A stretch of 64,000 bases of DNA from assembly GCF_000012945.1 (NCBI RefSeq), contig NC_007510.1, positions 1,984,001 to 2,048,000 of the forward strand, written 5' to 3'. The translations under genes and the position numbers were made by a program. This stretch comes from Burkholderia lata (GTDB lineage: Bacteria > Pseudomonadota > Gammaproteobacteria > Burkholderiales > Burkholderiaceae). Below, piece after piece: positions 27,585 to 41,974 of the stretch. The stretch's first letter is position 1, and every line of letters starts with the position of its first letter. The notes under the pieces are model-generated. The model was not told where the DNA came from, ran no database searches, and worked only from the letters and a program-made list of their open reading frames with translations.

Positions 27585-28091
27585 TCAACGTTTCTCCTGT
27601 CTGATTGTCGACCGGCGATTTTTTGATTTTTCCGTCGGCAAGGAATCGACAGTCGCGGAAGGTACAGCACCGATACCAACGAGCTTATCCCGAGCGTCCC
27701 GGTACGCTTCATAGAATTTTGCCCACTTGCTGAAGCCGCCTAGTTCGCCGACAGCGCGCAACATAGCGAGGTGTGACGCGGTAAGCAACTGCACGGTAGC
27801 TTCGAGCTCGGCGATCCTGATATCCTTGTCCGCAAGCGACGCGGCGGTGTCAGTTCCAGACCGCTTCGCGACGCGGCCACGCCACCGCCGGTATTCGGAC
27901 TGGCGCTGCTGATACTCGGCAAGTAAGCGACTGCGAGACTCACTGCGGGTAATCGACGAGGCCGCTTTGATCGATGGATGAAGCCGTGCAACAGCACGCG
28001 CCGTGATGTTTTCGTCGTCGGCCAGCAGCACATCAAGAATCTCGCGCATTGGCTCGTCGCCAGCTGATACCATTTCGTTCTTGTCAGTCAT
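27585..28091 (-). CDS. Small protein of the recombinase operon (GinD-like)
   Basis: A 168-residue, highly charged protein. It opens with MTDKNEMVSAGDEPMREILD, has an HTH-like stretch (NITARAVARLHPSIKAASSITR), and a long helix near residues 50-110 ending in DIRIAELEATVQLLTASHLA that looks like a coiled coil. The tail is basic. The start at 28091 overlaps the preceding recombinase stop by 8 bases, so it is the fourth gene of the operon. Its place and size match GinD of GInt islands and also recall TnpC of Tn554-type elements, both accessory factors for multi-recombinase systems. The assignment rests on layout more than on sequence. Confidence 0.6.
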   Translation of the reverse strand: MTDKNEMVSAGDEPMREILDVLLADDENITARAVARLHPSIKAASSITRSESRSRLLAEYQQRQSEYRRWRGRVAKRSGTDTAASLADKDIRIAELEATVQLLTASHLAMLRAVGELGGFSKWAKFYEAYRDARDKLVGIGAVPSATVDSLPTEKSKNRRSTIRQEKR

Positions 28092-30408
28092 CAAGTACTC
28101 CACGTGGCGGCGGCAGTGCGAGATCAAGGCCATCGGGGAACGGATGGTCGCCTGGCTGCGTTGCGAGCAGTTTCTGAACGCCCGCAAGCCGCTTTTCCGC
28201 ATGTTCGAGCTGGTTCTTCCAGCCGATGCTCGTTGAAGGCCGAACTTTAATCGTCTCCAGCGCCAGCGAGAGCTTGCCTTCGAGCCGGATGAGATTCTGC
28301 CGGTGCTCAGGGAGATCGGTCGCCGAGAGGTGACGGCAGCCGGCGAAGCACTCGAGATGCTTCGGGCAAGGGTCGACGGTGAACGAGTTCAGGCAATGCC
28401 CGTACGGAGTGGCATGGAATCCGTCGGCTTCGGCACGCAGGTATTCGTATGCAGCTGCGTCGCCATCTGCGGCCTGGATGCGACGGAATGCATCGACGAT
28501 TGGACCGCTAGCTTTGCCGCCCTTGATGAGCCTAGCAACGGTGGTCGCTTTCGCGCCGAGCATGATCTCGATATCCTGCGGAATCTCGATCTGCTCGAGT
28601 TCCTCGGCCAAGCTGCGATGATCGTACTCGTAGCTTTGCGCGACACTGCGCCGGTTGAAGCGCTTCGAGATGATCGTGTCGGCCACGCCCAGCCGGAACA
28701 GCTCTGTATTCTGGAGATGGCGTAGCATGTGAGACTCCATGCGCAACGCCCGGTCGTCATCGGTCAGCCCATATTTCTCGAACAACGTGACACACGTTGG
28801 ATGCTCTCCCAGCGCCAAACCGATAAGATCATGCGCAGGCCGTCGCACGGACATATATCGGCTAATGTCACACAGCAATTCGTTGCGCTCCTCAGCAAGC
28901 GAGCGCTTGGGCAGCGTGAACAGAAATTCCCAAGGTTGAATCACGCCGCTTTCCAGTGGCAACGGCGCAGTATCAGATGCCTTCGTCGGCGTCGCGAGCC
29001 GGATGTGCTCCTCGAGTTCGCCGACGCGCAGATACGCCGCATGCCATTCCATTCGTTCGAGCCGCTCAATTGGCGAACCGTCGCCGTGGCGGAAGCATAG
29101 ACTGGTCTCGCCCTCAAGCATCGCTGTCTTCAGGCGATTCCCGAATTTGTAGACGGCCATGTCGAGCCGCAGGTCGCCACTGCGTCGCCGCTCATGCTGG
29201 TATTCGTGTAGTTCAGCAAGGACGGCGGGATCGAAGCCATTCCGATAGCGTTCGATGAACGCTTCCCGTTCAATTTTCAGCCAGAACGGATTGCCCATGA
29301 GGCGTGTATAGACTTCGATGACGGGCACGAGTCCGTCAACTGGATACCATGGCAGCAACCGACCCGTTTCGCACTGCAGCTTCAACGTCGCACGCAGGGG
29401 TTCGGTGATCCGACCCACATGATCAAGTGTTTCTGTCAACAGCGTCCGGAACATCTCAGGCACGGGCTGGGTCGCTTGACGCAGCACCCGACTGTCCGTC
29501 TCTTCCTCCTGCTGCTTTTCCGCGAAGTGGCGGACCATCAAGGATGTCGAGATACCGCCGGAGTCACCGGCCGGTCGTCCCTTCGAATCCAGGTACGTTC
29601 GCTCCCGCTTCCAGTCAACCGGCAGCAGTGCGACTTCGCCCGCACGCATGCCGGTCACAATCATCGTGCGTATCGCAGCGAACCGCAGATCGTCCACGAA
29701 CGTCCGCGGCTGTTCGGTCATCACGATTCGCGTCAGCTCCCAGAACGCCCTGCGCTCCGGCAGACGCTCACCACGCTTGCGTGCTTCGAGGTCGTCGCGA
29801 AGCTCGTCCGATGACCACGTGTGTTTTGCCTTGATCGCGCTTTTACCTTTCATGCGCGGAACAGCAAGCGCCGGGTATAACGGACCCGCGTCGCAGATGT
29901 GCTGGGCATCAAGCACCGCCTTGACGATGCCGACCACCAGGTCCCCTAGCTTCCCGGTGGCCTGGATAGCCTTGCCAATGCGCACAGCAACGTGCATGTC
30001 ATCGACGGTCAACTCCCAAGGCTCCTTGCTCACGCACGTAGCAACCACGCGTAACGGGCGAGCGATATTCTGAGCCACATGTCCAGTCGTGTTCCTCCTG
30101 AACAGCAACTGCTCGGCGACTGCCGCCTTAATCAGGTCCTGCCATGCAAAGGAGAGCGGCCGTCTGGCGAGTGGAATCAGGCCGCGCTCGACACGCTCTG
30201 CATTGACGATGGCCAATGCCTTCACTTCGGTGCCGAAGTCTCGTAGATAGTAGGTCGGAGGTGGCACATCGCTAACAGCGGTCGTCAGATTCCAGCCAAC
30301 ACCGTCTTGAGCGGAGCCTGACGGGTCAAGAGGTATTTCCCAGCACATCCCCTTTTCACGCGCGAGCGTTTTACCCAGTTCAATGAATGCAGAGTAGTGC
30401 GGATTCAT
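28084..30408 (-). CDS. Large tyrosine recombinase, third gene of the quartet (GinC-like)
   Basis: A 774-residue protein. Its catalytic domain has Arg255 in VTGMRAGEVALLP, a His-x-x-Arg-His in SHMLRHLQNTEL (about residue 575), and a candidate Tyr in RRSVAQSYEYDHRS. After the catalytic part comes a Cys/His cluster (SFTVDPCPKHLECFAGCRHL) that could bind zinc. The start overlaps the upstream recombinase stop by 4 bases. Large recombinases with this architecture occur as the third enzyme of ginABCD operons, where all four genes are needed for island excision and integration. Here all motifs look intact. Confidence 0.8.
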   Translation of the reverse strand: MNPHYSAFIELGKTLAREKGMCWEIPLDPSGSAQDGVGWNLTTAVSDVPPPTYYLRDFGTEVKALAIVNAERVERGLIPLARRPLSFAWQDLIKAAVAEQLLFRRNTTGHVAQNIARPLRVVATCVSKEPWELTVDDMHVAVRIGKAIQATGKLGDLVVGIVKAVLDAQHICDAGPLYPALAVPRMKGKSAIKAKHTWSSDELRDDLEARKRGERLPERRAFWELTRIVMTEQPRTFVDDLRFAAIRTMIVTGMRAGEVALLPVDWKRERTYLDSKGRPAGDSGGISTSLMVRHFAEKQQEEETDSRVLRQATQPVPEMFRTLLTETLDHVGRITEPLRATLKLQCETGRLLPWYPVDGLVPVIEVYTRLMGNPFWLKIEREAFIERYRNGFDPAVLAELHEYQHERRRSGDLRLDMAVYKFGNRLKTAMLEGETSLCFRHGDGSPIERLERMEWHAAYLRVGELEEHIRLATPTKASDTAPLPLESGVIQPWEFLFTLPKRSLAEERNELLCDISRYMSVRRPAHDLIGLALGEHPTCVTLFEKYGLTDDDRALRMESHMLRHLQNTELFRLGVADTIISKRFNRRSVAQSYEYDHRSLAEELEQIEIPQDIEIMLGAKATTVARLIKGGKASGPIVDAFRRIQAADGDAAAYEYLRAEADGFHATPYGHCLNSFTVDPCPKHLECFAGCRHLSATDLPEHRQNLIRLEGKLSLALETIKVRPSTSIGWKNQLEHAEKRLAGVQKLLATQPGDHPFPDGLDLALPPPRGVLDD

Positions 30409-31943
30409 CGGCCCTCGCTTTCCAACTCATCGATGACCGTCTGTATTTCGGCGACCGTGCGCTGCAACTGCAGGTAGGTCGGAGACCGGGTGTCGCCTCG
30501 AGAACTCTGCTCAAAGAACACGACCACCTCGCGCATCGAGGCCAGTACGCTCTCGTGCATCACCTTGTCATGCAATGGCATGAACTTCCTACACCCGTAG
30601 CACGACGTCACCGGGTTATAGGGGCACGCAGGCTGTCCCGATGTACAACCGCCGATGCCCGCGATCGGAATGCCGTGAGGCACGCCAGCAATCTGCTGTT
30701 CATCTTTAAGTAAGGTGAGCTCTTCCGGGGAGATGAACCGGTCGTGCGCGATCTTTGCCACGCGTCGGTAGATGTCCGATGCTCCTAGCGCGCGGTTGAC
30801 CCGTTCAGCGTGGGAGGCCGACGTCGAGAAGTACACCAGTCCGGTCTGGACGTACGAATGCCCCATGAACTCGGCAAGCTCTTCGTGGCTCGCTCCGGCG
30901 TCAACAAGCCGCTGGGCCGCAGTATGCCGCAGATCGGTAGCTGTGCCGAGTTCATCGGAACCAATCAGCTTGCGCACAAGTGCAGCGATGCGAGCCCCAG
31001 CCTCGTAGTTTGACTGAACATTGAAGAAGTGTGCGTCGCCAGTGGCTCCGCCGACCCGCCGCCATTTTTCGAGCGCAACAAACAGGGGCGCCCACTCGCG
31101 CTTGACTCGACGCGTAAGGGGACGCTGCTTGGCTTTACCGCGCTGTTTGGCCATATGGAACGTCAGATGCACGGTTGGCAAGCCGTCTTGGGCATCGTGC
31201 CAGATGCGGACGTTTCGCATATTCAGCATCGCAATCTGGATGGGACGCATGGCAAACTGGTAGGCACACAGCAGCATCCCCGTATCGCAAAGCACCTCGT
31301 TTGAAACCAATGCCGGGGAGGTAAGGGCAGTGACGGTCTCGTCCAGATGCCGCACGACCGCGGCCTCCTCATCCGCGTTCAGAAACACATCACCCGAGTG
31401 AACACCCATGTAGGCATCGCGGGCCGGTAAGGGTAGGGTATTCGTGATGTAGGAACTGTAGGAGTCGGACCAATCTTGCAGCCGGTGACGGCACAGTAGC
31501 CGAAGCAGCGACTTTGCCAGGATGTAGGCCGCGAGAGGCATTTCCCGCACGCGCAACCCAGCCCAGACAGCCGCTATTCCCAAAGGCCCTGCGCGCACGA
31601 TGTCAGCGATATCTTTCAGCGACATGTGTGTCGCCGCGATCAAGTAGTTCGCAGCGGTGGAAACGGTGAGATCCACGCTCAGGAGATACAGGAAGACGTG
31701 CTTTAACAGCAGGGCGTGCCTTTTCTCATGCCGAGTGAAGTCGACCCTGATCGTTCGGCCGTTGATTGCCAGTTCAAACAGCATCGCACTGGCAGGATCG
31801 TGAATCGAGTGTTGGGTGTCGTCAAAGTCATCGTAGTAACGAATGAATGGTGGCAAGACCGGCAGCGCCGCCAGGACACGATCGATGACATCGCCGGCGA
31901 ATCGCGGCTCCGAAGACAGCCCTGAACTATGTGGCTTTCCCAA
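30405..31943 (-). CDS. Tyrosine recombinase, second gene of the quartet (GinB-like)
   Basis: A 512-residue protein if started at the TTG at 31943, which has CGGAG 7 bases upstream and follows the previous stop with one base between. An ATG at 31988 is the alternative (44-base overlap). The open frame continues to 32174 but that part is a shadow of the upstream gene. Catalytic residues: Arg in YQFAMRPIQIAML, the DLRHTAAQRL box, and FMGHSYVQTGLVYFS with the candidate Tyr. A C-terminal cysteine cluster (GCTSGQPACPYNPVTSCYGC) resembles a zinc ribbon, as in the GinC-like protein. It overlaps that gene by 4 bases. Confidence 0.8.
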   Translation of the reverse strand: MGKPHSSGLSSEPRFAGDVIDRVLAALPVLPPFIRYYDDFDDTQHSIHDPASAMLFELAINGRTIRVDFTRHEKRHALLLKHVFLYLLSVDLTVSTAANYLIAATHMSLKDIADIVRAGPLGIAAVWAGLRVREMPLAAYILAKSLLRLLCRHRLQDWSDSYSSYITNTLPLPARDAYMGVHSGDVFLNADEEAAVVRHLDETVTALTSPALVSNEVLCDTGMLLCAYQFAMRPIQIAMLNMRNVRIWHDAQDGLPTVHLTFHMAKQRGKAKQRPLTRRVKREWAPLFVALEKWRRVGGATGDAHFFNVQSNYEAGARIAALVRKLIGSDELGTATDLRHTAAQRLVDAGASHEELAEFMGHSYVQTGLVYFSTSASHAERVNRALGASDIYRRVAKIAHDRFISPEELTLLKDEQQIAGVPHGIPIAGIGGCTSGQPACPYNPVTSCYGCRKFMPLHDKVMHESVLASMREVVVFFEQSSRGDTRSPTYLQLQRTVAEIQTVIDELESEGR

Positions 31944-31944
31944 A

Positions 31945-33168
31945 TCAGCTCCGAAGAGGTAAGGCGCGAAGCAGCGCAACCCGGTCATCGAAGGCGTCAT
32001 TCCATACGCCGGCCAGCCTGTCCTCAAACACCGCACGTGCGTACCGGGACGCCATGGCCGATGTCTTGGACCAACCAAAGAATGTTCGCATCTTCTGGAG
32101 TGCTTCATCCATTGCATCGCCGTGCTCAAGCAACTGGTGCAATCGAACGACAGCGCAGGTATGGCGCAGATCATGGGGCGTTATCGCATCCTTGCCAGTG
32201 CGATTCTTCAGTTCCGCGAGTACTTCACGCGGCAGGCGGCAAGATATCCGCGCGAATATCTTGGTCAGCGCTTCGGTCGACAGAGGCGTATCACACTGGG
32301 AGTTCAGCAGATAGGAATGAGAAGGTCGGCCGCGATAGTTCTCGACGTAACGTTGGACCACGCCGGCTGTCAGCTCGCTAACAGGAACCTGCCGAACCGA
32401 ATGCGCGTTCTTGATGCCCGGCTTCGAGTAGCGAGGGTCAACCTCCGAATCCTCGTATTCGTTTTCCTGGACGTTGAGCCAGTATCGCGTTCGCTGCTGC
32501 CTGTGGTCGTAAGCGCTTTTCACCGCGTCGGCCGGCAGAAGCAACGCTTCGCCTCGGCGTAGCCCTTGGTGCAACATCAACACAAAGGCAACAAAAACGC
32601 GCCAGCGCGTCCGTTCGCGTGCAAACGGATTTCGCCGGGAATCCGGGTCAAGCAACAGGTACAGCGCTTCAACAATGCTGGCGGGCAACGAGCGCACCAT
32701 CTCGACGGAATTGTCCCTGCGCACGTGAAGCTGGCTGTAAAGCCCGGCGAGCCTGTGTAGCCGCGGTTCGATTTGTCTCAGCCGGTCATTGGCGGCTTCG
32801 CTTTTCGATAGCCACGTAACCACGGATGACACGAATTCAAGGCCCGTCTGCCAGCGCTTTTCATCGGCACCGGTCACCACAGACTGATTGCGGATCGAAA
32901 CGAACCACGATTCGAGGATTTCAGCCAGTGCTTCGTGGTTTAACGTTCCCAGCGCGTCATCCAAGGCATTTGGACCGCCTAGCACGGCTGCATGCCGATA
33001 CAAGTCTTCCAGATACCGGAGCTTTTTCGTGTGCGTGGACACGGCTAACTGAGAAGACGACATCGTAGACCAGACCGCCGCCCAATAACGCGGCAACCCG
33101 GTGTCATCAAGCAGCAGTGGGCCACGGAGCGACGGCGGAACCGCAACGCCGAACAGTTGTTGAAACAC
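31945..33168 (-). CDS. Tyrosine recombinase, first gene of the quartet (GinA-like)
   Basis: A 407-residue recombinase. A core-binding domain occupies about residues 35-140; the catalytic domain has Arg204 in LHQGLRRGEALLLP, His332/Arg335 in TPHDLRHTCAVV, a Trp-x-x-Thr box in FFGWSKTSAM and Tyr376 in ASRYARAVF, so the catalytic set is complete. It is first in a tightly overlapped operon of three different recombinases and a small protein. Direct repeats at 33187-33278 lie directly upstream of its start, a fitting place for recombinase binding or autoregulation. Confidence 0.82.
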   Translation of the reverse strand: MFQQLFGVAVPPSLRGPLLLDDTGLPRYWAAVWSTMSSSQLAVSTHTKKLRYLEDLYRHAAVLGGPNALDDALGTLNHEALAEILESWFVSIRNQSVVTGADEKRWQTGLEFVSSVVTWLSKSEAANDRLRQIEPRLHRLAGLYSQLHVRRDNSVEMVRSLPASIVEALYLLLDPDSRRNPFARERTRWRVFVAFVLMLHQGLRRGEALLLPADAVKSAYDHRQQRTRYWLNVQENEYEDSEVDPRYSKPGIKNAHSVRQVPVSELTAGVVQRYVENYRGRPSHSYLLNSQCDTPLSTEALTKIFARISCRLPREVLAELKNRTGKDAITPHDLRHTCAVVRLHQLLEHGDAMDEALQKMRTFFGWSKTSAMASRYARAVFEDRLAGVWNDAFDDRVALLRALPLRS

Positions 33169-33386: not shown

Positions 33387-34034
33387 TCAGGCAACCGGAT
33401 TCATCCACTCGGTCAGCCCTTCACGCGCATTCAATTCCAGGAACGTCGGCGTCCCGCGAAGGTGCTGGATATAGCGCACCAGATTCGGCCACGTCGTTGC
33501 CGGGCGCGGCATGTTTCGCGTCCAGCGCATGAGCATCAGCGCCAGGAAGTCGACCGTATTCAACCGGTCGTTGATCAAATACGTCCGACCGTCGGACAGC
33601 AGATTGTCGAGATGCGCCATCGACGCCTCGACTTGCCCGCGCGAAAACACCTTCACCATTTCAGCACATCGCGGATCACCATCCTTCTCCGCATAAAACC
33701 AGTTTCGCATTGCCGGCAAGACGGAATTGGCGAGATAGATCATCATCTCGAACCACTCGGGACGTTCAGGCGCGCCCGGATGCGGAGCCAGGCCCGGCTC
33801 CGGATGACGTTCGGCAAGCAGCATCAGCAAGGCGGCCGATTCGGTCCGCGGGATGCCGTCGACGACCAGCGTCGGCACTCGGCCGGCGGGATTCAGCCGC
33901 AGGTACTCGGAATCGTGCTGCGCCCCCGTATCGATATCGACGAGCCGCGTTTCGAACGGCACGCCGAGTTCGATCAGCATCCAGTGCACGGCCATGCTTG
34001 CCGCGCCGGGCGAGTAATACAGAACGTAGGACAT
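33387..34034 (-). CDS. Glutathione S-transferase
   Basis: A 215-residue GST. The N-terminal thioredoxin-like domain begins YVLYYSPGAASMAVHWMLIELGVPFE, with the cis-proline region NPAGRVPTLVVDG and a TESAALLMLLAERHP glutathione-contact motif (Glu-Ser). The C-terminal helical domain follows (LINDRLNTVDFLALML, the N-capping motif of GSTs). It catalyses glutathione conjugation or related thiol chemistry; the substrate is unknown. It is codirectional with the biosynthetic operon upstream, 120 bases beyond the MFS stop, and may be a tailoring or resistance gene of that cluster or an unrelated neighbour. It lies on the other side of the recombinase promoter. Confidence 0.9.
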   Translation of the reverse strand: MSYVLYYSPGAASMAVHWMLIELGVPFETRLVDIDTGAQHDSEYLRLNPAGRVPTLVVDGIPRTESAALLMLLAERHPEPGLAPHPGAPERPEWFEMMIYLANSVLPAMRNWFYAEKDGDPRCAEMVKVFSRGQVEASMAHLDNLLSDGRTYLINDRLNTVDFLALMLMRWTRNMPRPATTWPNLVRYIQHLRGTPTFLELNAREGLTEWMNPVA

Positions 34035-34154
34035 GGTCTGAGTTCGTCTCTTTGAGTTGAGTCGTATGCACGACGATCCTATGTCATCAATGCAAGATAA
34101 TCAGCCGGAAGCCGGAAGCGTTGCCCCCTGCCGCCCGTCGTCCGTTGGCCGCAC

Positions 34155-35404
34155 TCATTCGAACGTCGCGCTTCGTGGTTCATCGGATCCGATCGCCACG
34201 CCATCAGAAATTTGCCGCTGAAGTTGCCGGTGCGCAATCAGAATGAACGGCACAAAGACCGCACTCACGGCCGCAATCACGAGATAAGTGCCGGGAATGG
34301 CAAAGCGGTCGGCCAGCAAACCGCCGGCAAACGAACCGACGGGATACCCCCCATATACGATTACCCGAAAAAAGCCGTTCACGCCCCCGAGCAAATGCTG
34401 CGGCACCAACTCTTGCCGCATCGTGATAACGATGGATGACCAGATCGTCGCGCCGATTCCGGTCAGGAACAAGGCTGCTCCAACGATGACAGGCGCTTTC
34501 GTGACGCTGGAGATCAGTATCAGGAAGAGAATGCCGGCGGCGTCGACGAACAGCAGCATCAGGTTGTTCTTGTCGATCCGTATTCTTTCCAGCACCAATG
34601 CAGCAGCCACCGCCCCGCTGGCGAGCACCGCCATCATAAAACCGTACGAGCCTTTCGTCAGGGTTCTGGGAACGGCTTCTATCAGGTAATACGGCTCGAG
34701 GGAAAGCCACGCTCCCCAGGCGACAGACATGCCGAAACCCACCGCAGCCAACGGCGCCAGCACCCTGCTCCTCAGCAGCCAGACCACTGGATCGAGCAGG
34801 GATTTCGGAATGGAGCGCCGGGTGACATGCTCCGGGACAGCCGGTCGCGCGCCCCTGAGTAAAAACGACAGCAAGCCTGCCGATACGGCATAAGACAAAG
34901 CGATGATCGCAAGACCCAGCACCGGTCGGAAAAGACTGAGAGTCGACCCGAGAACCGGCCCAAGAAATTCCGAGCAAACCGTATGCGTAACCGCCAGTCG
35001 CGTATTGCTTCTGACGCGATTCTCGGCCGTCGTCAGATCCAGCACCAGCTTCGGCAACGACACTTCGAATAGCACATCGAACAATCCATATACGAACGCA
35101 GCGAAATAGAGATGGTAGAGCCCCAGCCGGCCGTGTAACGCAACGATTGCGAGATAGGCAAGACGCCACGGACAAGATGACACCAGAATGGCACCGACCT
35201 GACTTGCAGACGATCAACCAGCACACCCGAGAGCAAGCCGAACAGCGGCCAGCCGAGCGTCAGGAAAGTGAACACGTAGGCGACGTCGCTGGGCGCGATC
35301 GCGAGGGACAGCGCAACGAACGGGAGAAAAATCTTCTGGCTGCCATCCGTGAAATTGGACAGCGCAACCGATCGCCAGAGTTGCCTGAACCGAGCTCCGC
35401 TCAT
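34155..35404 (-). pseudogene. MFS exporter of the biosynthetic operon, frameshifted
   Basis: Two frames together make one MFS protein of about 415 residues. The first (35404 down to about 35165) reads MSGARFRQLWRSVALSNF through GLLSGVLVDRLQVRSV and has the first two or three spans. The second (from about 35183 to 34155) continues LAYLAIVALHGRLGLYHLYF and holds the remaining spans. The change of frame falls around 35157-35180 and needs one missing or two extra bases; no slippery heptamer is visible. The start overlaps the ATP-grasp gene stop by 4 bases. Both halves keep good coding character, so the lesion is recent or a sequencing error. The role would be export of the cluster product. Confidence 0.8.
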
Positions 35405-36795
35405 GTCGGCTCACCTCCAAGGTCGCGTTCGGAATGGGTGCCGCCGCCACTGTCCATGCGCGTTGTTTCCGAAATCGACGTACGTCGCGGAGATCCATTT
35501 GTCACGAACGTCGGACGAAGCGCTCCACTCTTGCCGACATTGACGACCGGGTCATGCGATGCCCGGCATAGAAATCCAGCCGGCTCCCCGCCGACCATAT
35601 ACAGCCCCATGTCCGTGTATGCCGCAAAGCGGCCGGGGTCATCGAATACAGGGTTCAGCACCTCTTGCCGATCGAGTTCGACCCACTCCTGCACGATATA
35701 CCGGTCGAGTGTGGGCGACGCAACGAGTTCACGCCATTCGGCATCCGAGGTATGGCGACCGATGTGAACACCCCGCCCGCGGGATTCGATCACCTGCTTG
35801 AGCACGCACTGGTTCTTTTCATGCAACAGTCGTTCCCGTCCGCCGAATTGCTGCAGGCCATCTGCGCTCAGCGACCAGGTTCGCGCAACGAGACGTTTGA
35901 TCGCGTCGACTTCCGGGCTCGATAGATGGCGCTGGACTCGCTCGGTATGCAGCATCGCAAGCATCCGCTTGTTCTCGGCCAGCAATTGCGAGGCAAACGA
36001 GTTGACGTATTTAAAGGCACCATCACGGACCGCTTCGAGGAACGGTTGGCGCACGGCTTCCGGGCCATAAATCCCGAGATCCATGTCGCCGGCCTCCGTC
36101 ACGACAGCATCGAATTTCAGATAGGCAACCGTGACCGGCGTTCCTTTGTGCGTAAGTTGCCTGCCGTCGTAGTCCAGATCCTGCACGTCGCAGCGGATTG
36201 CCCCATATCCACGCTCCTGCGCCAATTCGGTCAGCCGGTCCAGATCCGTGACAATGCGACGGTGCTTGCTGCTGATGAACGCCATGTTCAACGGCGCACC
36301 GCGATCGACGAGCGACGCCAGATAGTCAACAAAATAGAACTTGTTATCGACGGTCAAAGGGACATGAGTACCGGCGATATGTGCGTTGAAGAATGCCGAC
36401 GCACGGAATGCCTGATTGATGTCGCCCACCGTCGTCAGTGCTCCCGGGCACCCCGCATTCGTCTCCATCATCCTGACCCCGCCTCCCTTGACGATCGCGA
36501 GATCAAATCTCGCGAGATCGATCAATCTCGACGTCGATCCCGGGAAACGAACCAGGTCTTCCAATCCGTGAAGCTCGGGGAAATGGCGCCATAGCGAGCC
36601 ATCGCTGCTGACTATTCCGATCGCCTTCTCGAGCGCGACCAGAACTTGTCTCGCGTCTCGACAAATCTCGTCGTATTCCCGCTCGGGAATCAGCAGAGGC
36701 GTAGGAGATACCGGAAACGGGCGATTCTTGTCGAGGAAGGTCACGCTATTGTGCATGGCCGCCCTCAGGGCGCTATAGTCGTCGGACATGGACAC
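35401..36795 (-). CDS. Circularly permuted ATP-grasp-type ligase (first of two)
   Basis: A 464-residue protein. The motif METNAGCPGALTTVGDIN (about residues 110-127) resembles the E-x-N-x-x-P metal/nucleotide segment of circularly permuted ATP-grasp enzymes such as the glutathionylspermidine-synthase group. Later come FASQLLAENKRMLAML, CVLKQVIESRGRGVHIGRH (Lys and glycine-rich nucleotide loop) and DRYIVQEWVELDRQEVLNP. ATP-grasp ligases activate a carboxylate as acyl phosphate and join it to an amine or thiol. A weaker relative (454 residues) lies two genes upstream. Its stop overlaps the MFS start by 4 bases, and a 20-base gap separates it from the KAS III gene. Function in the cluster is inferred from the family only. 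Confidence 0.7.
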   Translation of the reverse strand: MSMSDDYSALRAAMHNSVTFLDKNRPFPVSPTPLLIPEREYDEICRDARQVLVALEKAIGIVSSDGSLWRHFPELHGLEDLVRFPGSTSRLIDLARFDLAIVKGGGVRMMETNAGCPGALTTVGDINQAFRASAFFNAHIAGTHVPLTVDNKFYFVDYLASLVDRGAPLNMAFISSKHRRIVTDLDRLTELAQERGYGAIRCDVQDLDYDGRQLTHKGTPVTVAYLKFDAVVTEAGDMDLGIYGPEAVRQPFLEAVRDGAFKYVNSFASQLLAENKRMLAMLHTERVQRHLSSPEVDAIKRLVARTWSLSADGLQQFGGRERLLHEKNQCVLKQVIESRGRGVHIGRHTSDAEWRELVASPTLDRYIVQEWVELDRQEVLNPVFDDPGRFAAYTDMGLYMVGGEPAGFLCRASHDPVVNVGKSGALRPTFVTNGSPRRTSISETTRMDSGGGTHSERDLGGEPT

Positions 36796-36815
36796 GATCC
36801 CTTATTGCGAATACG

Positions 36816-37805
36816 TCAGAATTCCAGCAGGAGCGATCCCCATGACAGCCCCACTCCGAAGCCGGTCAACAAAACCTTGCGTCCGGCGAGCGCTCGCTCT
36901 TGCATGATTCGACCAAGCGCGAGGGGAATGCTGGACGAAGTGGTGTTCCCTCCGTCCTGAAGGAGGACCGGCACCTCGGTGTTAACGCCGAACGGCAGGC
37001 GCTCGATCAATAGCTCAAGCATCGGGCGAGAAGCTTGGTGCAATACGACAATATCGACATCGCTCGGTTGCACACCGTTCGACGCAAGGCATTTCGTCAT
37101 GCTTTCCGGCACACGTTTGCTGAAATAGCTCGCCAGCTTTGCACCATTCATCCGGACCGAATGCGCGTCGGCCTCCGGAACGGGCGTATCGTCCAGCAAA
37201 TGGCTGGTGCGCCGCGCATCTCGCCACTGCGGTGTATGAAGCGCGCGCCACTCGCCTCCGTCGGTCCCGAAATCCCCGACACAGATTGCCCCGCCGCGAT
37301 CGCGTTCAAGCAGCGTGGCTGTCGCCGCGTCGCCGAAAATGGCGGCGGTCTTCGGTTGATCGAGTGTCAGGAGACGGGAATAAGGATCGTTCGTGACGAT
37401 CACCGCCCGATTCCAGTTCTGCGCTTCCAGCATTCCCCGACACAACGACAAAACATAGGGAAACGCAGAACACCCCAGCGATACATCGAATGCGGCCGGA
37501 TGGCCCTGATATGACAACATGCCGAGCAACTGCGCTGCACTGTGCGGCATACTGCGGCCCGGGTTCTGCGTGACATAAACGAGGAGATCGATATCGCCGT
37601 CGCCAAAACCGGTCTGCGCCTGCAACTTGGCAAAAGCATCTCTCGCCAGTGGAAGCTCGCACTGGTCACGCTCCAGTAAAAACCGGCGACGAATACCTGT
37701 CTTGGCCAGTACCTGTTCCTCGGTTAGCCCAACTCTGCTGCCGTAAGCCTGAGCCGTTAGCATCGTCTCCGGAAATGCCCAGGCGATTGACGATACGCCG
37801 ATCAT
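36816..37805 (-). CDS. Beta-ketoacyl-ACP synthase III (FabH-like)
   Basis: A 329-residue thiolase-fold enzyme. Cys112 in SLGCSAFPYVLS, His256 in VVLHQASRPM and Asn287 in DGGNTTSSSIPLAL form the Cys-His-Asn triad at positions matching FabH. The C-terminal GKVLLTGFGVGLSWGSLLLEF-like end (FGVGLSWG) is typical. KAS III enzymes start fatty-acid chains by condensing an acyl-CoA with malonyl-ACP; dedicated copies in gene clusters make short beta-keto acyl-ACPs or act as acyltransferases. The start overlaps the upstream ATP-grasp gene by 4 bases (ATGA); the longer open frame to 38264 is a shadow. With the ACP two genes upstream it probably supplies or transfers the acyl unit. Confidence 0.88.
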   Translation of the reverse strand: MIGVSSIAWAFPETMLTAQAYGSRVGLTEEQVLAKTGIRRRFLLERDQCELPLARDAFAKLQAQTGFGDGDIDLLVYVTQNPGRSMPHSAAQLLGMLSYQGHPAAFDVSLGCSAFPYVLSLCRGMLEAQNWNRAVIVTNDPYSRLLTLDQPKTAAIFGDAATATLLERDRGGAICVGDFGTDGGEWRALHTPQWRDARRTSHLLDDTPVPEADAHSVRMNGAKLASYFSKRVPESMTKCLASNGVQPSDVDIVVLHQASRPMLELLIERLPFGVNTEVPVLLQDGGNTTSSSIPLALGRIMQERALAGRKVLLTGFGVGLSWGSLLLEF

Positions 37806-39166
37806 GTCGACACCCCTTTTAGCGTATCGACGGCGGCAACCGTGGTCAGGCCGATATTGCCGTCGGTCGGCAACGCGAAAACGGCATCGTCGTCTGCCTG
37901 AGCACCTTGAATCCTGACAAGCCAGCCGTCCGGCTGATCTCCGAACACGAAAGGGCCAGCAGTCCCACTGCAATGCCTGAGTCCCAGGCTGCCGTCGTGA
38001 TCGCGAAACCAAAGAGGAAACTTGTCGGCGACGACAAATCGCTGCACGACCCAATCCTCTCCATCGTCCCGCTTCATCTTGGTGCGGGAAATGATGTCGT
38101 CCCAAATGGCATCGTCGGTCCGGCTGCCGATGAATACCTGCTTGCCTACGTGCGACGCGCAGCGCTTCAGGACCAGCGTGCCTTTTTGCGCTCTGACGAA
38201 CTTCTCCAGATCCACGATCTCGCCATCGACCGTCGTGACCTTCCTGTCCATCAAACGTGTCCATGGCACAAGTGCCTTGAGTCGACCGAGTTCCGGGTCG
38301 TCTTGCGACTGCTGGTCGAGGAACTCGCTCACCAGTGCCAGCGCGCCCTTGTCGTCGACGCCGATATCCAGCGGATCACCGAGCGTGATCGTCCGTGTCG
38401 AGCGGGCCGCGTTCAACGCCTGTGCCATGCCTGCAAGCAAGATCGGCTCGTGAAGGAAACAGGCGTCCCGATAGAAAATGCCATATTCCGTTTGACCGTC
38501 GGTGAGCCACTCCCCTTGCCGGAGCGCCTCCGGAAAAACCGTTCTCGCTGGAACGCCCAAACGAGCACTGATCCGAGCGGCCAGATGATCGGATTGGTCC
38601 AGATAGAATCGGCTGAAATCGGCGAGTGGCGTGATGCACACCGATTGCCGTGATGCCTTGGTCAACTGGTTTTGAATGAAACCCAGTTGACTCTCGAAAG
38701 GATTCTGCAATTCGTACGCGAGAAGACTGCCAAGACCTGAATCGAGGTAACCGTCCGTCAATACGCCGACCTCCTGAATCCCCCCCATTCCGGAATCCAT
38801 ATTGAACTCCAGGACCCGGAGCTTGCCCCCTGCCAGAATGCAGTCGGGACGCCCCATCAGCGGCTGCCTTTCCGCATCCCTGTATCGTTCCACGATCGAA
38901 CGGTCGTGCGCCCTGATTGGCGCACGGTCGTCGAGATGTGCAAGCGACACTGCTCGGGCAAGCTGCATGAGCACGCGCAAGTCGTGTGACGCCTGTTTCA
39001 GGAACGCGGCCTCCATCAACACGGGTGCAATCGGGATATCGCCGTACTCGTAGCAAAATCCGAATTCCGCGTAAGCAGCGAGGAGCGCATCGTGCCAGCC
39101 CAAATCCGTGTGCAGGCACTGTGCCTCATTCGCTTTCAGTTCGATGAGGGGGCTCGCGGAACTCAT
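37802..39166 (-). CDS. ATP-grasp-like ligase (second of two)
   Basis: A 454-residue protein distantly related to the one at 35401. It has LRVLEFNMDSGMGGIQEVG (about residues 115-133) in the place of the E-x-N motif, FVRAQKGTLVLKRCASHVGKQVFIG (Lys plus nucleotide loop) and DWVVQRFVVADKFPLWF near the end. I take it as a circularly permuted ATP-grasp enzyme. Two such ligases in one operon suggest two successive amide or ester bonds, or a heteromeric enzyme. The gene overlaps both neighbours by 4 bases. It is less clear than the first ligase because the glycine-rich loop is altered, and it could be a non-catalytic partner. Confidence 0.6.
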   Translation of the reverse strand: MSSASPLIELKANEAQCLHTDLGWHDALLAAYAEFGFCYEYGDIPIAPVLMEAAFLKQASHDLRVLMQLARAVSLAHLDDRAPIRAHDRSIVERYRDAERQPLMGRPDCILAGGKLRVLEFNMDSGMGGIQEVGVLTDGYLDSGLGSLLAYELQNPFESQLGFIQNQLTKASRQSVCITPLADFSRFYLDQSDHLAARISARLGVPARTVFPEALRQGEWLTDGQTEYGIFYRDACFLHEPILLAGMAQALNAARSTRTITLGDPLDIGVDDKGALALVSEFLDQQSQDDPELGRLKALVPWTRLMDRKVTTVDGEIVDLEKFVRAQKGTLVLKRCASHVGKQVFIGSRTDDAIWDDIISRTKMKRDDGEDWVVQRFVVADKFPLWFRDHDGSLGLRHCSGTAGPFVFGDQPDGWLVRIQGAQADDDAVFALPTDGNIGLTTVAAVDTLKGVST

Positions 39167-40386
39167 AGAAGGCCAATGCTCCGTCCCACTTCCGCGAAAG
39201 TGACAAGCGCGCTCGAGATATCCGATTCCGTCAGCGACGCGCTGGCGTTGACGCGGATGCGGGCGCGATTCATCGCAACCGCCGGGTAACAGATCGGATT
39301 AACGAAGACGCCGCGCTCATGCATGCCGCGCGCGAAATTGAAGGCGGTCGCCCGATCAGGCATCGCGAGCGGGATGATCGGCGTCTCGCTATGCATCACG
39401 TCGAAGCCGACTTCCCGCAATCCGTCGCGAATCTGCCGCTCGTTCCTGTGCAGCCGCACCTGGATGTCGGGTTCGCTTTCGAGTATTTCGACCGCCTTGA
39501 TCAAGCCACCGGCAACCGAAGGCGGAATGGACGCCGAGAAAATGTAGCCGTTGGAGCCGTAGCGAAGCAGTTCGCCGATTTCCTCGCTGGCACACGCAAA
39601 CCCGCCCACTCCCGGCAGTCCTTTGCTCAAACTGCCGATCAGGACGTCCACCTCCTTCTCGAGTCCGAAGTGCGCCAAGGTTCCTCGTCCGTTCGGCCCG
39701 CAGGACGCCGTCCCGTGGGCGTCGTCGACGATAACGAACGCGCGATATCTCTTTGCCAGCTCGACAATCTGCGGCAACGGCGCAAAGTCGCCGTCCATGC
39801 TGAATACGCCATCGGTAATGATGAACTTGCGATCCGAGAGCGGCGCGGATCGCAACAACCCTTCGAGCTGTGCAACGTCCTTGTGCGAATACTTCACCTG
39901 CTTCGCCCGCGACAGCCGAATACCGTCAGCGATCGATGCGTGATTGAGCTCGTCGCTGTAAATAACGTCCGTTTCGCCTGCCAGTGTCGAGATCACGGCG
40001 AGATTCGCTACATATGCGCTTGAGTACGTTACGCACGATTCGAAGCGCGTAAACGCCGCCAGCGCGTTTTCCAGATCGAGATGCAACGCGGTAGTTCCGT
40101 TCAGGATCCGCACCCCGCTGGTCGTCGCACCGTGACGATCCAGCGCCTCGCGTGCGGCATCAACGACTTCATGCCGGTCGTTCAGCCCCGAGTAGTTATA
40201 GGAGCCGAAATGAATCTGCGGCACATCCGGATGATCGCCATGCGAGAGCCGTGCAGTCACTGTCCTGCCCGGCACGCCGGAACACACCCGGCTCCAGACC
40301 TGCTTGTTGCCGCTTTGTGTCAACCATTCGTTCAGTTTATTGAGCGCCCGAACCCGGGTGGAGCCGTCAAAGATATTCAACGTCAT
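39163..40386 (-). CDS. PLP-dependent alpha-oxoamine synthase (BioF/Kbl family)
   Basis: A 407-residue fold-type I enzyme. GSYNYSGLND and GVRILNGTTALHLDLENALA are the substrate-binding segments of 8-amino-7-oxononanoate/2-amino-3-ketobutyrate synthases; DDAHG (221-225) holds the PLP-pyridine Asp, and GSLSKGLPGVGGF holds Lys255, the Schiff-base lysine. These enzymes condense an acyl-CoA or acyl-ACP with an amino acid with loss of CO2, giving an alpha-amino ketone. With an ACP gene overlapping by 4 bases, an acyl-ACP substrate is likely here. It is not biotin biosynthesis, as no other bio genes are near. Confidence 0.9.
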   Translation of the reverse strand: MTLNIFDGSTRVRALNKLNEWLTQSGNKQVWSRVCSGVPGRTVTARLSHGDHPDVPQIHFGSYNYSGLNDRHEVVDAAREALDRHGATTSGVRILNGTTALHLDLENALAAFTRFESCVTYSSAYVANLAVISTLAGETDVIYSDELNHASIADGIRLSRAKQVKYSHKDVAQLEGLLRSAPLSDRKFIITDGVFSMDGDFAPLPQIVELAKRYRAFVIVDDAHGTASCGPNGRGTLAHFGLEKEVDVLIGSLSKGLPGVGGFACASEEIGELLRYGSNGYIFSASIPPSVAGGLIKAVEILESEPDIQVRLHRNERQIRDGLREVGFDVMHSETPIIPLAMPDRATAFNFARGMHERGVFVNPICYPAVAMNRARIRVNASASLTESDISSALVTFAEVGRSIGLL

Positions 40387-40643
40387 TCGACTTCCCCGTT
40401 CGCGTTCGCCTCATTGGTAATGCGGTCAGCAATTCTTCCGATGCTTTTCAGCCGTCCCACCTGCTCCTCATCTATCTCGACGCCAAAGGTGTCTTCAATG
40501 AATATTGTCAACTCGAGAACAGTGAAAGAATCGATCGCCCCATCCGCAAAAATTTCCGCATCCGCATCGAACTCTCCGGCCTTGATTCCTCCATGCTTGA
40601 CCAGAAAATCCACGATCTTTTGCGCAATCTCATGCTGCTGCAT
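40383..40643 (-). CDS. Stand-alone acyl carrier protein
   Basis: An 86-residue acidic carrier protein. Ser39 in FADGAIDSFTVLELTIFIED is the phosphopantetheine site (D-S-F/L motif), followed by the acidic recognition helix (FGVEIDEEQVGRLKSIGRIADRI). It carries the growing or activated acyl group. It lies one base after the diiron gene stop and overlaps the alpha-oxoamine synthase start by 4 bases, so its product is made next to the enzyme that most likely uses it. A phosphopantetheinyl transferase is not encoded nearby and must come from the host. Confidence 0.92.
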   Translation of the reverse strand: MQQHEIAQKIVDFLVKHGGIKAGEFDADAEIFADGAIDSFTVLELTIFIEDTFGVEIDEEQVGRLKSIGRIADRITNEANANGEVE

Positions 40644-40644
40644 A

Positions 40645-41580
40645 TCAGATTTCCTTTCGGTTATAGTTGCCGATCAATGTCCGTATGGTGTTGGCGGTCT
40701 GCTGGTGAACCTCATCAAATGCCGCGCGCAGCACATCTGGATCCCGACCTGCATCCATCATCCCGCCAAGCAAATGTGCGGAATATCGGATATGAAATTT
40801 CTCGTCGTTGTAGATGGCAGAAAACGTGTCGTTAAGCCGACTCATCAAGGGATCATTGAACGCGGCTGTAATGTGCAAAACATGCTGAACGTAGAACATC
40901 GTCCGGACTTCAGCGGCATGAATAAAGCACATGAACCGATAAAGATCGCCACCCCATTTTTCATGCAGATCCATATAGTAAGGATCGATGTAGTCTGGCG
41001 GGCCGAGCATTTCATCAGGGGCATAGTGACCAAGATCCCTGAGCAGCTTCAAAAAAAGCATCCCGTGACGCTCTTCGTCTTCAGCATGGCTGATCAGGAT
41101 TTTCCGATGCTCCCCGCCCCGCTCCTCCGCAACCAGCCGCACCCAACGCCCTCCGTGATTTTCCGTGAACGCGTGCTCTGTCAGCTTATCTTTGAGCTCG
41201 ATGGAATCGATCATCATGACCGCATTGGCAGCCATCAGATCAACCTTCGCATACTGAGCACCGTCGCTGGCTTTCGCCAGAACCCGCCAGAAAACATCGG
41301 GGATCTTCATGCGCTTTTCGTCAGCCAGCGTACGCACCAATGCGACAGACGAGCCTTCGATACGGGGAGGCACGAACATTTCAATTCCCGGAATATGAGA
41401 TATTTCGATGCGACTGGAACGGATATCGAGAATCCGTAGTTCACAAAACTTGAAACCGGCGTTCTTTTCGATTCGTTCTACAAAAAATGGAACTCGATCA
41501 ATTTCTTGCTCATTACATCCAGCATCACAACATACCTGCACCCGAAACGATCGAATTCTTTCAAAAACCATTCGATCCAT
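40645..41580 (-). CDS. Ferritin-like diiron oxidase/oxygenase
   Basis: A 311-residue helical protein. Two Glu-x-x-His motifs, EERH (169-172) and EKFH (260-263), with further Glu residues in TEHAFTENH and IHAAEVRTM (Glu224), fit the diiron site of ferritin-like oxygenases such as AurF-type N-oxygenases or fatty-acyl oxidases. About 110 N-terminal residues have no recognised domain. As first gene of the operon and next to the ACP, it may act on an ACP-bound intermediate or on an amino group. The start ATG at 41580 has no strong ribosome site; an ATG three codons later is the alternative. Confidence 0.75.
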   Translation of the reverse strand: MDRMVFERIRSFRVQVCCDAGCNEQEIDRVPFFVERIEKNAGFKFCELRILDIRSSRIEISHIPGIEMFVPPRIEGSSVALVRTLADEKRMKIPDVFWRVLAKASDGAQYAKVDLMAANAVMMIDSIELKDKLTEHAFTENHGGRWVRLVAEERGGEHRKILISHAEDEERHGMLFLKLLRDLGHYAPDEMLGPPDYIDPYYMDLHEKWGGDLYRFMCFIHAAEVRTMFYVQHVLHITAAFNDPLMSRLNDTFSAIYNDEKFHIRYSAHLLGGMMDAGRDPDVLRAAFDEVHQQTANTIRTLIGNYNRKEI

Positions 41581-41974
41581 AAATCACAAAATAAATTACC
41601 TCTCCAGCCTTCCAAGAACAAGCTGTCAATCCTCCCAGTACGAACTCGTGAAAGCACTCAATTCGTGCGTGTAATTAATAAAAATTTCCCACACAACGAC
41701 GGAATCGCAATACGAACGAAAAGAAGCGGGACCCTGTCGAATGACAGATAGCTGGCCGCCCCATCGGGAGCGGCCGACAACGGAAAATGCGTCATGCGGT
41801 GAAAATGAAAGGGAGCGGATTACCCTGGCGAGTCGTTCGAGTTCACAGCGCCGAATCAAGCGTCACTGCAAACCGTCCTGTGCACCCGAAATGACACGGC
41901 CTCGTGGTGATTGACGGGGCCGCTGAGACCATTGGCAAGGAGTGCCGGGAGGCGACTTCCTTCTTCAACCCAAG
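41581..41974. promoter_or_regulatory. Promoter region of the biosynthetic operon
   Basis: There is no supported gene here. The part next to the operon (41581-41720) is AT-rich for this genome. At 41734-41747 there is a dyad CTGTC-GAAT-GACAG, 154 bases upstream of the first gene. It resembles quorum-sensing boxes, but its spacing is two bases short of the usual lux-box spacing. The GC-rich RND gene ends at 41975, so this gap also marks a sharp change in base composition. Confidence 0.4.

What the first reader, a model, noticed from the sequence alone, without database searches (positions are those of the whole stretch)
34155..41580. Compact seven-gene biosynthetic operon with no NRPS or modular PKS
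Seven genes read in one direction with 4-base overlaps or gaps of at most 20 bases: diiron oxidase, ACP, alpha-oxoamine synthase, ATP-grasp ligase, KAS III, second ATP-grasp ligase, MFS exporter. All key residues (ACP Ser39, synthase Lys255, KAS triad Cys112/His256/Asn287, two ExxH motifs) are visible. Family knowledge: alpha-oxoamine synthases join an acyl thioester to an amino acid with CO2 loss to give alpha-amino ketones, and ATP-grasp enzymes add amide bonds. I infer a small lipid-amino-ketone decorated with one or two amino acids, possibly oxidised at nitrogen or carbon by the diiron enzyme. Free alpha-amino ketones can dimerise to pyrazines, another possible product. I know no described cluster with this exact gene set.
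Basis: partly seen in the sequence, partly recalled or inferred. Interest (0 to 1): 0.85.

Follow-up and report, generated by a model that had tools for sequence, protein, structure and literature searches.

The report
Compact peptide-like aminoketone gene cassette
A very rare, self-contained seven-gene cassette, inserted whole into a Burkholderia-like chromosome, appears to build a small peptide-like aminoketone without the usual giant assembly-line enzymes, although the exporter gene is broken in this genome and the product is unknown.

Summary
The operon is real. Its residue and spacing claims hold, with two corrections. The MFS exporter is split over two reading frames, so it is not intact as assembled. 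The diiron gene probably starts near 41379, because four relatives lack the upstream extension.

The operon lies in a discrete insert of about 7.9 kb (34061-41974) between a GST gene and an RND gene. Four relatives have these genes 45-85 bases apart. I saw no other gene of note in the insert, so the seven look like the whole cassette.

It is very rare. The first ATP-grasp ligase (AG1) has 10 close relatives in a 5.8-billion-protein search and occurs in 1 of 398 sampled family genomes. Two metagenome contigs appear to carry diiron, AG1 and AG2 relatives together; two other long ones do not.

AG1 has the glutathione/glutathionylspermidine synthetase fold, as does E-64's ligase Cp1B.

Best reading: KAS III and ACP supply an acyl thioester, the oxoamine synthase joins it to a small amino acid, two ligases add amide bonds, the diiron enzyme oxidises. 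Product and order are inferred: a new variant of NRPS-free pseudopeptide pathways.

The parts
34061..41974 (.). Discrete insert (7,914 bases by these ends; the left end may lie up to 35 bases further right) between a GST gene and an RND efflux gene; holds the whole operon; GC 57.3% against 67.2% for 42-62 kb
   Evidence: Four relatives (G011, G018, G043, G049) have the GST and RND matches 45-85 bases apart; break seen by blastn in G011, G043 (34060/41975) and G018 (34095/41975) (sequences); GC
40645..41379 (-). Putative ferritin-like diiron oxidase, 244 aa from the likely start; ExxH at residues 102 and 193, further conserved acids E73, E86, E157
   Evidence: no Pfam match at E<=0.001; weak Rubrerythrin/Haem_oxygenas_2/AurF signals only
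41380..41580 (-). Upstream extension of the diiron ORF, probably not coding: absent from four relatives, though the database's own call keeps most of it
40383..40643 (-). Discrete acyl carrier protein, 86 aa, attachment Ser39
   Evidence: PF00550 27.2 bits, cut-off 20.8; Ser39
39163..40386 (-). PLP-dependent alpha-oxoamine synthase, 407 aa; Lys255, DDAH, Arg378; Val92 aligns with ThAOS Val79
   Evidence: ThAOS residue roles from passages of PMC11906848
37802..39166 (-). AG1: ATP-grasp ligase with glutathione/glutathionylspermidine-synthetase fold, 454 aa; EFN at residue 120
36816..37805 (-). KAS III (beta-ketoacyl synthase III), 329 aa; Cys112/His256/Asn287 intact
   Evidence: PF08541/PF08545 over cut-off; triad
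35401..36795 (-). AG2: second ATP-grasp ligase, distant paralogue of AG1, GTG start; ETN at residue 111
   Evidence: GSP_synth 22.7 bits, below cut-off 29.3; HHalign AG1 family to AG2 family probability 99.5, E 1.3e-21
35033..35404 (-). N-terminal piece of the MFS exporter frame
   Evidence: MFS_3 E 4.3e-4, below cut-off; frame break
34155..35183 (-). C-terminal piece of the MFS exporter, in a different frame
   Evidence: MFS_1 49.3 bits, cut-off 33.4
41581..41974 (-). Upstream stretch of the insert, likely promoter region; no sigma-70 consensus found there

Best explanation
A horizontally acquired, self-contained operon for an NRPS-free, pseudopeptide-like alpha-aminoketone. Shown: seven genes in one insert; catalytic residues present in ACP, AOS and KAS III; AG1 has the glutathionylspermidine/glutathione synthetase fold and AG2 is its distant paralogue. 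Inferred: (1) KAS III and the dedicated ACP make or load an acyl (probably beta-ketoacyl) thioester; (2) the AOS condenses it with a small amino acid (Gly, Ala or Ser) with loss of CO2, releasing an alpha-aminoketone; (3) AG1 and AG2 activate carboxylates as acyl phosphates and form two amide bonds, one capping the reactive amine; (4) the diiron enzyme oxidises the chain or the peptide; (5) the MFS protein exports the product, a step that is broken in this assembly.
For: Insert boundaries coincide with the operon. Domains and residues. AG1 fold; AG2 paralogy. Co-occurrence of diiron, AG1 and AG2 relatives (58-62% identical by the search tables) is inferred from shared contig lengths 7641 (source lgn) and 76279 (source ena). 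Precedents seen as passages: E-64 ligase Cp1B (PMC12568646), mangotoxin with two ATP-grasp ligases plus a diiron oxidase (PMC13185094), ketomemicin AOS KtmB with ATP-grasp KtmD (PMC11943689; KtmB also PMC11906848); linked ligases often make successive ligations (PMC4431377). Small amino acid: Val92 matches ThAOS Val79 and a Val in KBL 1fc4, and wild-type ThAOS uses Gly, Ala, Ser and Aba.
Against: No product, substrate or expression data. The exporter frame is broken, so the pathway may be inactive here. Of four contigs over 7 kb that carry a close AG1 relative (own genome left out), two (37,964 and 31,488 bases) show no diiron or AG2 relative. ACP, AOS and KAS III could not be checked on the metagenome contigs. 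AG1 has no Pfam match at E<=0.001 and AG2 is below its cut-off. The diiron model failed (pLDDT 44.7), so its chemistry is open.
Confidence: 0.55

Rival explanations
1. Hydroxypyrrole or pyrrolinone route. KAS III makes a beta-ketoacyl-ACP, the AOS condenses it with an amino acid, and the amino-diketone cyclises to a 3-hydroxypyrrole (as recalled for PigH in prodigiosin synthesis), which is then oxidised and ligated.
For: KAS III keeps the Cys-His-Asn triad that fits decarboxylative elongation, and ACP and AOS overlap by 4 bases. The PigH precedent is recalled, not read.
Against: No ring-forming or methylating partner among the seven genes; two ligases would have no obvious role; PigH-type enzymes (recalled) are fusions with ACP domains.
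Confidence: 0.2
2. Sphingolipid-like or other long-chain lipid aminoketone: the AOS acts as a serine palmitoyltransferase on an acyl-ACP and the ligases decorate the base.
For: Stretches LNGT and FVNP shared with the solved SPT 3a2b; a PKS-linked AOS with SPT activity is known and its homologues are mostly in Burkholderia (PMC12134224 passages).
Against: All three NCBIfam SPT models fall far below cut-off (334 of 640, 301 of 500, 257 of 670 bits); Val92 where SPT 3a2b has Ser; no reductase or ceramide synthase recognised in the insert.
Confidence: 0.12
3. Free alpha-aminoketones are released and dimerise to pyrazines.
For: Chemistry of free alpha-aminoketones (recalled).
Against: Two amide ligases in one transcription unit argue for capping the amine; no tool result supports a pyrazine.
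Confidence: 0.05
4. A decaying, non-functional relic of such an operon in this strain.
For: MFS exporter split over two frames; found in 1 of 65 genus genomes by KAS III at E<=1e-60.
Against: The six enzyme/carrier genes are open, with the key residues of ACP, AOS and KAS III intact; a single frame break may be an assembly error. This can be true together with the best explanation.
Confidence: 0.25

Closest known systems
Ketomemicin pathway (ktmA-F), Salinispora/Streptomyces/Micromonospora
   Same: [quoted passage not shown] KtmB as an AOS in PMC11906848 passages)
   Different: ktm also has aldolase, dehydratase, dehydrogenase and amidinotransferase, and the listed genes include no ACP, KAS III or diiron enzyme; here two ligases of the glutathione-synthetase fold
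E-64 pathway, ligase Cp1B (fungi; distant cyanobacterial clusters)
   Different: Uses an epoxysuccinate warhead enzyme and an ANL-type amide bond synthetase; no AOS, ACP or KAS III in the passages read
Mangotoxin pathway (mboA-F), Pseudomonas (genus recalled)
   Same: Two ATP-grasp ligases plus a diiron oxidase, no NRPS, tripeptide intermediate (PMC13185094 passages)
   Different: Oxidase MboA is of the heme-oxygenase-like fold, not shown here; no AOS, ACP or KAS III in the passages read
ThAOS / KBL / SPT alpha-oxoamine synthases
   Same: Aligned over residues 57-406 with e.g. 7poa at E 1e-84; Lys255 and Arg378 regions conserved
   Different: Reaches none of the NCBIfam curated cut-offs of the 12 families listed, KBL, BioF, SPT, ALAS and CAI-1 type among them
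SgaAB PKS/AOS sphingolipid clusters
   Same: AOS fed by a ketosynthase/carrier system, homologues mainly in Burkholderia (PMC12134224 passages)
   Different: Monomodular PKS instead of discrete ACP and KAS III; no ATP-grasp or diiron partner in the passages read

Membership tests
Ketomemicin (ktm) type cluster | AOS-family C-acyltransferase plus ATP-grasp ligase | tested here: met
   AOS; ligase fold. Met only at the level of enzyme class; no Ktm sequence was compared
Ketomemicin (ktm) type cluster | Aldolase, dehydratase, dehydrogenase and amidinotransferase genes | tested here: not met
   No such family among the operon's proteins
E-64 (cp1) type cluster | Glutathione-synthetase-fold ATP-grasp ligase | tested here: met
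   [not shown]
E-64 (cp1) type cluster | Fe/2-oxoglutarate epoxidase and ANL-type amide synthetase | tested here: not met
   No such Pfam match in any operon protein
Mangotoxin type (HDO plus two ATP-grasp) | Heme-oxygenase-like diiron oxidase | tested here: inconclusive
   Haem_oxygenas_2 in 2 of 5 members, best E 0.012; Rubrerythrin in 4 of 5, best E 0.0031; model too poor; no link to the HDO-like protein of L044
Mangotoxin type (HDO plus two ATP-grasp) | Two ATP-grasp ligases | tested here: met
   AG1 by fold; AG2 by homology to AG1 and sub-threshold GSP_synth
Glutathione/glutathionylspermidine synthetase superfamily (AG1, AG2) | Fold (AG1) and E-x-N metal motif (motif recalled) | tested here: met
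   EFN at 120 in AG1, ETN at 111 in AG2. AG2 itself was not folded
Glutathione/glutathionylspermidine synthetase superfamily (AG1, AG2) | Curated Pfam cut-off | tested here: not met
   AG2 22.7 bits of 29.3; AG1 no match at E<=0.001; 8 of 10 AG1-family members match CP_ATPgrasp_2 at E<=10, best 5.2e-6, own member none
Serine palmitoyltransferase | NCBIfam SPT cut-offs | tested here: not met
   334.1/640, 301.5/500, 257.1/670 bits
KBL / BioF / ALAS / CAI-1 synthase | NCBIfam cut-offs | tested here: not met
   379/460 and 324/493 (KBL), 360/426, 245/339, 201/428 bits
KAS III | Pfam KAS III domains and Cys-His-Asn triad | tested here: met
   (NCBIfam KAS III models below their cut-offs)
Ferritin-like diiron oxidase | Two ExxH motifs plus further carboxylates in a helical bundle | tested here: inconclusive
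   ExxH at 102 (5 of 5 rows) and 193 (4 of 4 rows that reach it), E73 and E157 conserved; fold not confirmed
PigH-type hydroxypyrrole synthase | AOS fused to two ACP domains | tested here: not met
   Stand-alone AOS and ACP; definition recalled

The most novel reading that the evidence does not exclude
A new class of minimal natural-product assembly line. A discrete KAS III/ACP pair feeds an alpha-oxoamine synthase, whose aminoketone is capped by two glutathione-synthetase-fold ligases and oxidised by a new diiron family, giving a ketone pseudopeptide from a movable 7.9-kb cassette found almost only in metagenomes.
Probability: 0.35. Interest if true: 0.75.

Novelty: new variant of a known kind. 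Interest (0 to 1): 0.55.

Why it matters
ATP-grasp, NRPS-free pathways are a growing source of protease inhibitors and antimetabolites. This cassette would add a carbon-carbon bond-forming core (KAS III, ACP and AOS) to that logic within about 7 kb of coding DNA, and it brings a diiron family and a ligase subfamily with almost no relatives in the genomes searched. The natural boundaries of the insert make the gene set unusually well defined for reconstitution.

Tried and rejected
Nothing found: AG1 in plasmids, in IMG/VR and in GTDB genome contigs; the last two test only two peptide patterns each, and these tools may leave out the window's own genome. PDB sequence searches for diiron, AG1 and AG2 gave only weak, unrelated hits. 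The diiron AlphaFold model was too poor to use and its Foldseek list, with nothing at E<=0.001, is not used. Paper searches for the gene set or parts of it listed nothing that matches it; HKI0874 gave none. PMC3268129 (amidoligase survey) is not held. PEARL enzymes, which resemble the same fold (PMC10979984 passages), were considered and not pursued. The VIA-align list for AG1 covers only Foldseek's top 1000, so families absent there are not excluded.

Looked at and set aside. AG2-like loci L041-L052: by tblastn none of the 12 carries a relative of AOS, KAS III, ACP or diiron; five (L042, L044-L047) also gave weak AG1 hits on the same AG2-like gene, and L041 and L042 have an MFS relative nearby. 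In 398 phylum genomes 8 match the AG2 profile at E<=1e-5, own included, best other E 1e-12. Best AOS relative outside the genus, G515 at 47%: a 7.3-kb contig with no other operon relative above chance. G1091 (L068) has an AG2-like gene beside a GntB-like hydroxylase (below cut-off), a PRK07505-type PLP enzyme and a MATE exporter: an analogue, not a relative of the whole. Antisense ORF 40081-41439 (+): treated as chance because it overlaps genes with homologues; not searched. Repeats at the insert ends: two overlapping shared 9-mers only.

An earlier count said no AG2-like locus had AG1 relatives; the five weak AG1 hits above correct it.
Full report
Observation. Junctions are +1, -4, -4, -4, +20 and -4 bases, which fits translational coupling. 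ACP Ser39, AOS Lys255, KAS III Cys112/His256/Asn287 and two ExxH motifs were located by script. Long frames are common in this DNA (longest 519 codons; 200 Markov controls mean 244, maximum 490), so the case rests on homology and on the insert, not on frame length.

Corrections. The exporter is in two frames: 35404-35033 and 35183-34155. GC at third codon positions moves to another frame at about 35.18 kb. I searched the pieces apart and did not rejoin them. The diiron ORF is listed from 41580, but four relatives begin at the residue matching Met68 or one residue later, so 41379 is the likelier start; the database's own call for this gene keeps most of the extension (P0020, 308 aa).

A discrete insert. 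The RND gene that ends at 41975 and the GST gene at 33387-34034 are neighbours in relatives. In G011, G018, G043 and G049 the matches to the two flanks lie 45-85 bases apart (coordinates). Blastn of fetched stretches shows the break at 34060 and 41975 in L077 (G011) and L079 (G043) and at 34095 and 41975 in L080 (G018); a fourth stretch, L078 (G008), keeps only 87 bases of GST-region similarity (sequences). G000 has about 7.9 kb there, GC 57.3% against 67.2% for 42-62 kb. All 65 genus genomes have a match to the RND query, many of them only at the level of paralogues, but 12 of 65, the own genome included, match the GST query at E<=1e-40. For the other seven of these the listed coordinates do not put the two genes together; that list is cut, and some genomes are fragmented. 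I saw no regulator or further enzyme in the insert, although ORFs of 77-88 aa at 41.4-41.9 kb were not searched, so the cassette is probably complete. No repeats of note mark its ends. The host is most likely Burkholderia: of 97 plasmid records matched by 42-62 kb, the best-covering one is B. stagnalis (64% of the query at 82.9%), with Caballeronia and Paraburkholderia next. The species is not identified.

Rarity. AG1: 19 proteins at E<=0.001 in a search of 5.8 billion (7,998 candidates scored, the cap), of which 11, the window's own included, are 55-100% identical; 1 of 398 sampled genomes of the family; none by pattern in GTDB contigs or IMG/VR, none in plasmids. Diiron: 5 proteins, own included, among 1,059 candidates. 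AG2: 9, of which 8 at 45% or more, own included (7,993 candidates scored, the cap). AOS: no match above 43% in the 64 other genus genomes; 5 of 369 class genomes pass E<=1e-84, own included, best other 47%. KAS III: 1 of 65 at E<=1e-60, the own genome.

Conserved unit? The contig lengths are shared. The contigs of 7,641 bases (source lgn) and 76,279 bases (source ena) each appear for a diiron, an AG1 and an AG2 relative, at 58-62% identity in the search tables. This is indirect but specific. Against it, AG1 relatives on contigs of 37,964 bases (P0003, 70%) and 31,488 bases (P0011, 55%) have no diiron or AG2 counterpart in those searches.

Mechanism. I commit to KAS III/ACP supplying an acyl or beta-ketoacyl thioester, AOS condensation with a small amino acid, two amide ligations and an oxidation (confidence 0.55 for the class of product; the order of steps is guesswork). 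Published analogues cover parts of it: ketomemicin (AOS plus ATP-grasp, PMC11943689), E-64 (same ligase fold, PMC12568646) and mangotoxin (diiron plus two ATP-grasp, PMC13185094). Linked ligases are said often to make successive ligations (PMC4431377). I saw passages and the start of abstracts of these, not whole texts. None of the six paper searches aimed at the gene set or parts of it listed a paper with the full set, within an open-licence library only.

Verdict. Real, rare and well delimited; a new variant of NRPS-free pseudopeptide pathways rather than a new kind. The broken exporter lowers the chance that this strain makes the compound.

Noticed in passing
window 27585-33168: Three or four tandem genes just left of the GST gene; two of them (30405-32174, 31945-33168) have integrase/recombinase matches below NCBIfam cut-off, the others were not searched. 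The sequence left of 33282 differs from the aligned relatives too, so this looks like a second, separate insertion at one hot spot.
   Followed up: partly
L044:7194-17878 and L045 (P. fluorescens HKI0874, Photorhabdus thracensis): A cluster, annotated by Pfam in L044, with a heme-oxygenase-like/cupin protein, aminotransferase class III fused to a sub-threshold GSP_synth-like ligase, ThiF, TauD, GNAT, two more ATP-grasp proteins and an MFS exporter. In L045 the neighbouring frames look alike, by their first residues only.
   Followed up: partly
   Followed up: partly
L041:6292-11227 (Streptomyces sp. A108): A YcaO protein, an MFS relative and an AG2-like ligase in a row.
   Followed up: no
   Followed up: no
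G000:C2:791893-794550: Carrier-domain frame of 2,546 aa followed by an AOS, which may be the SgaAB-type PKS/AOS pair reported to be common in Burkholderia.
   Followed up: no
window 41626-41859 (-): A 77-aa TTG-start ORF upstream of the diiron gene, inside the insert; probably chance, not searched.
   Followed up: no
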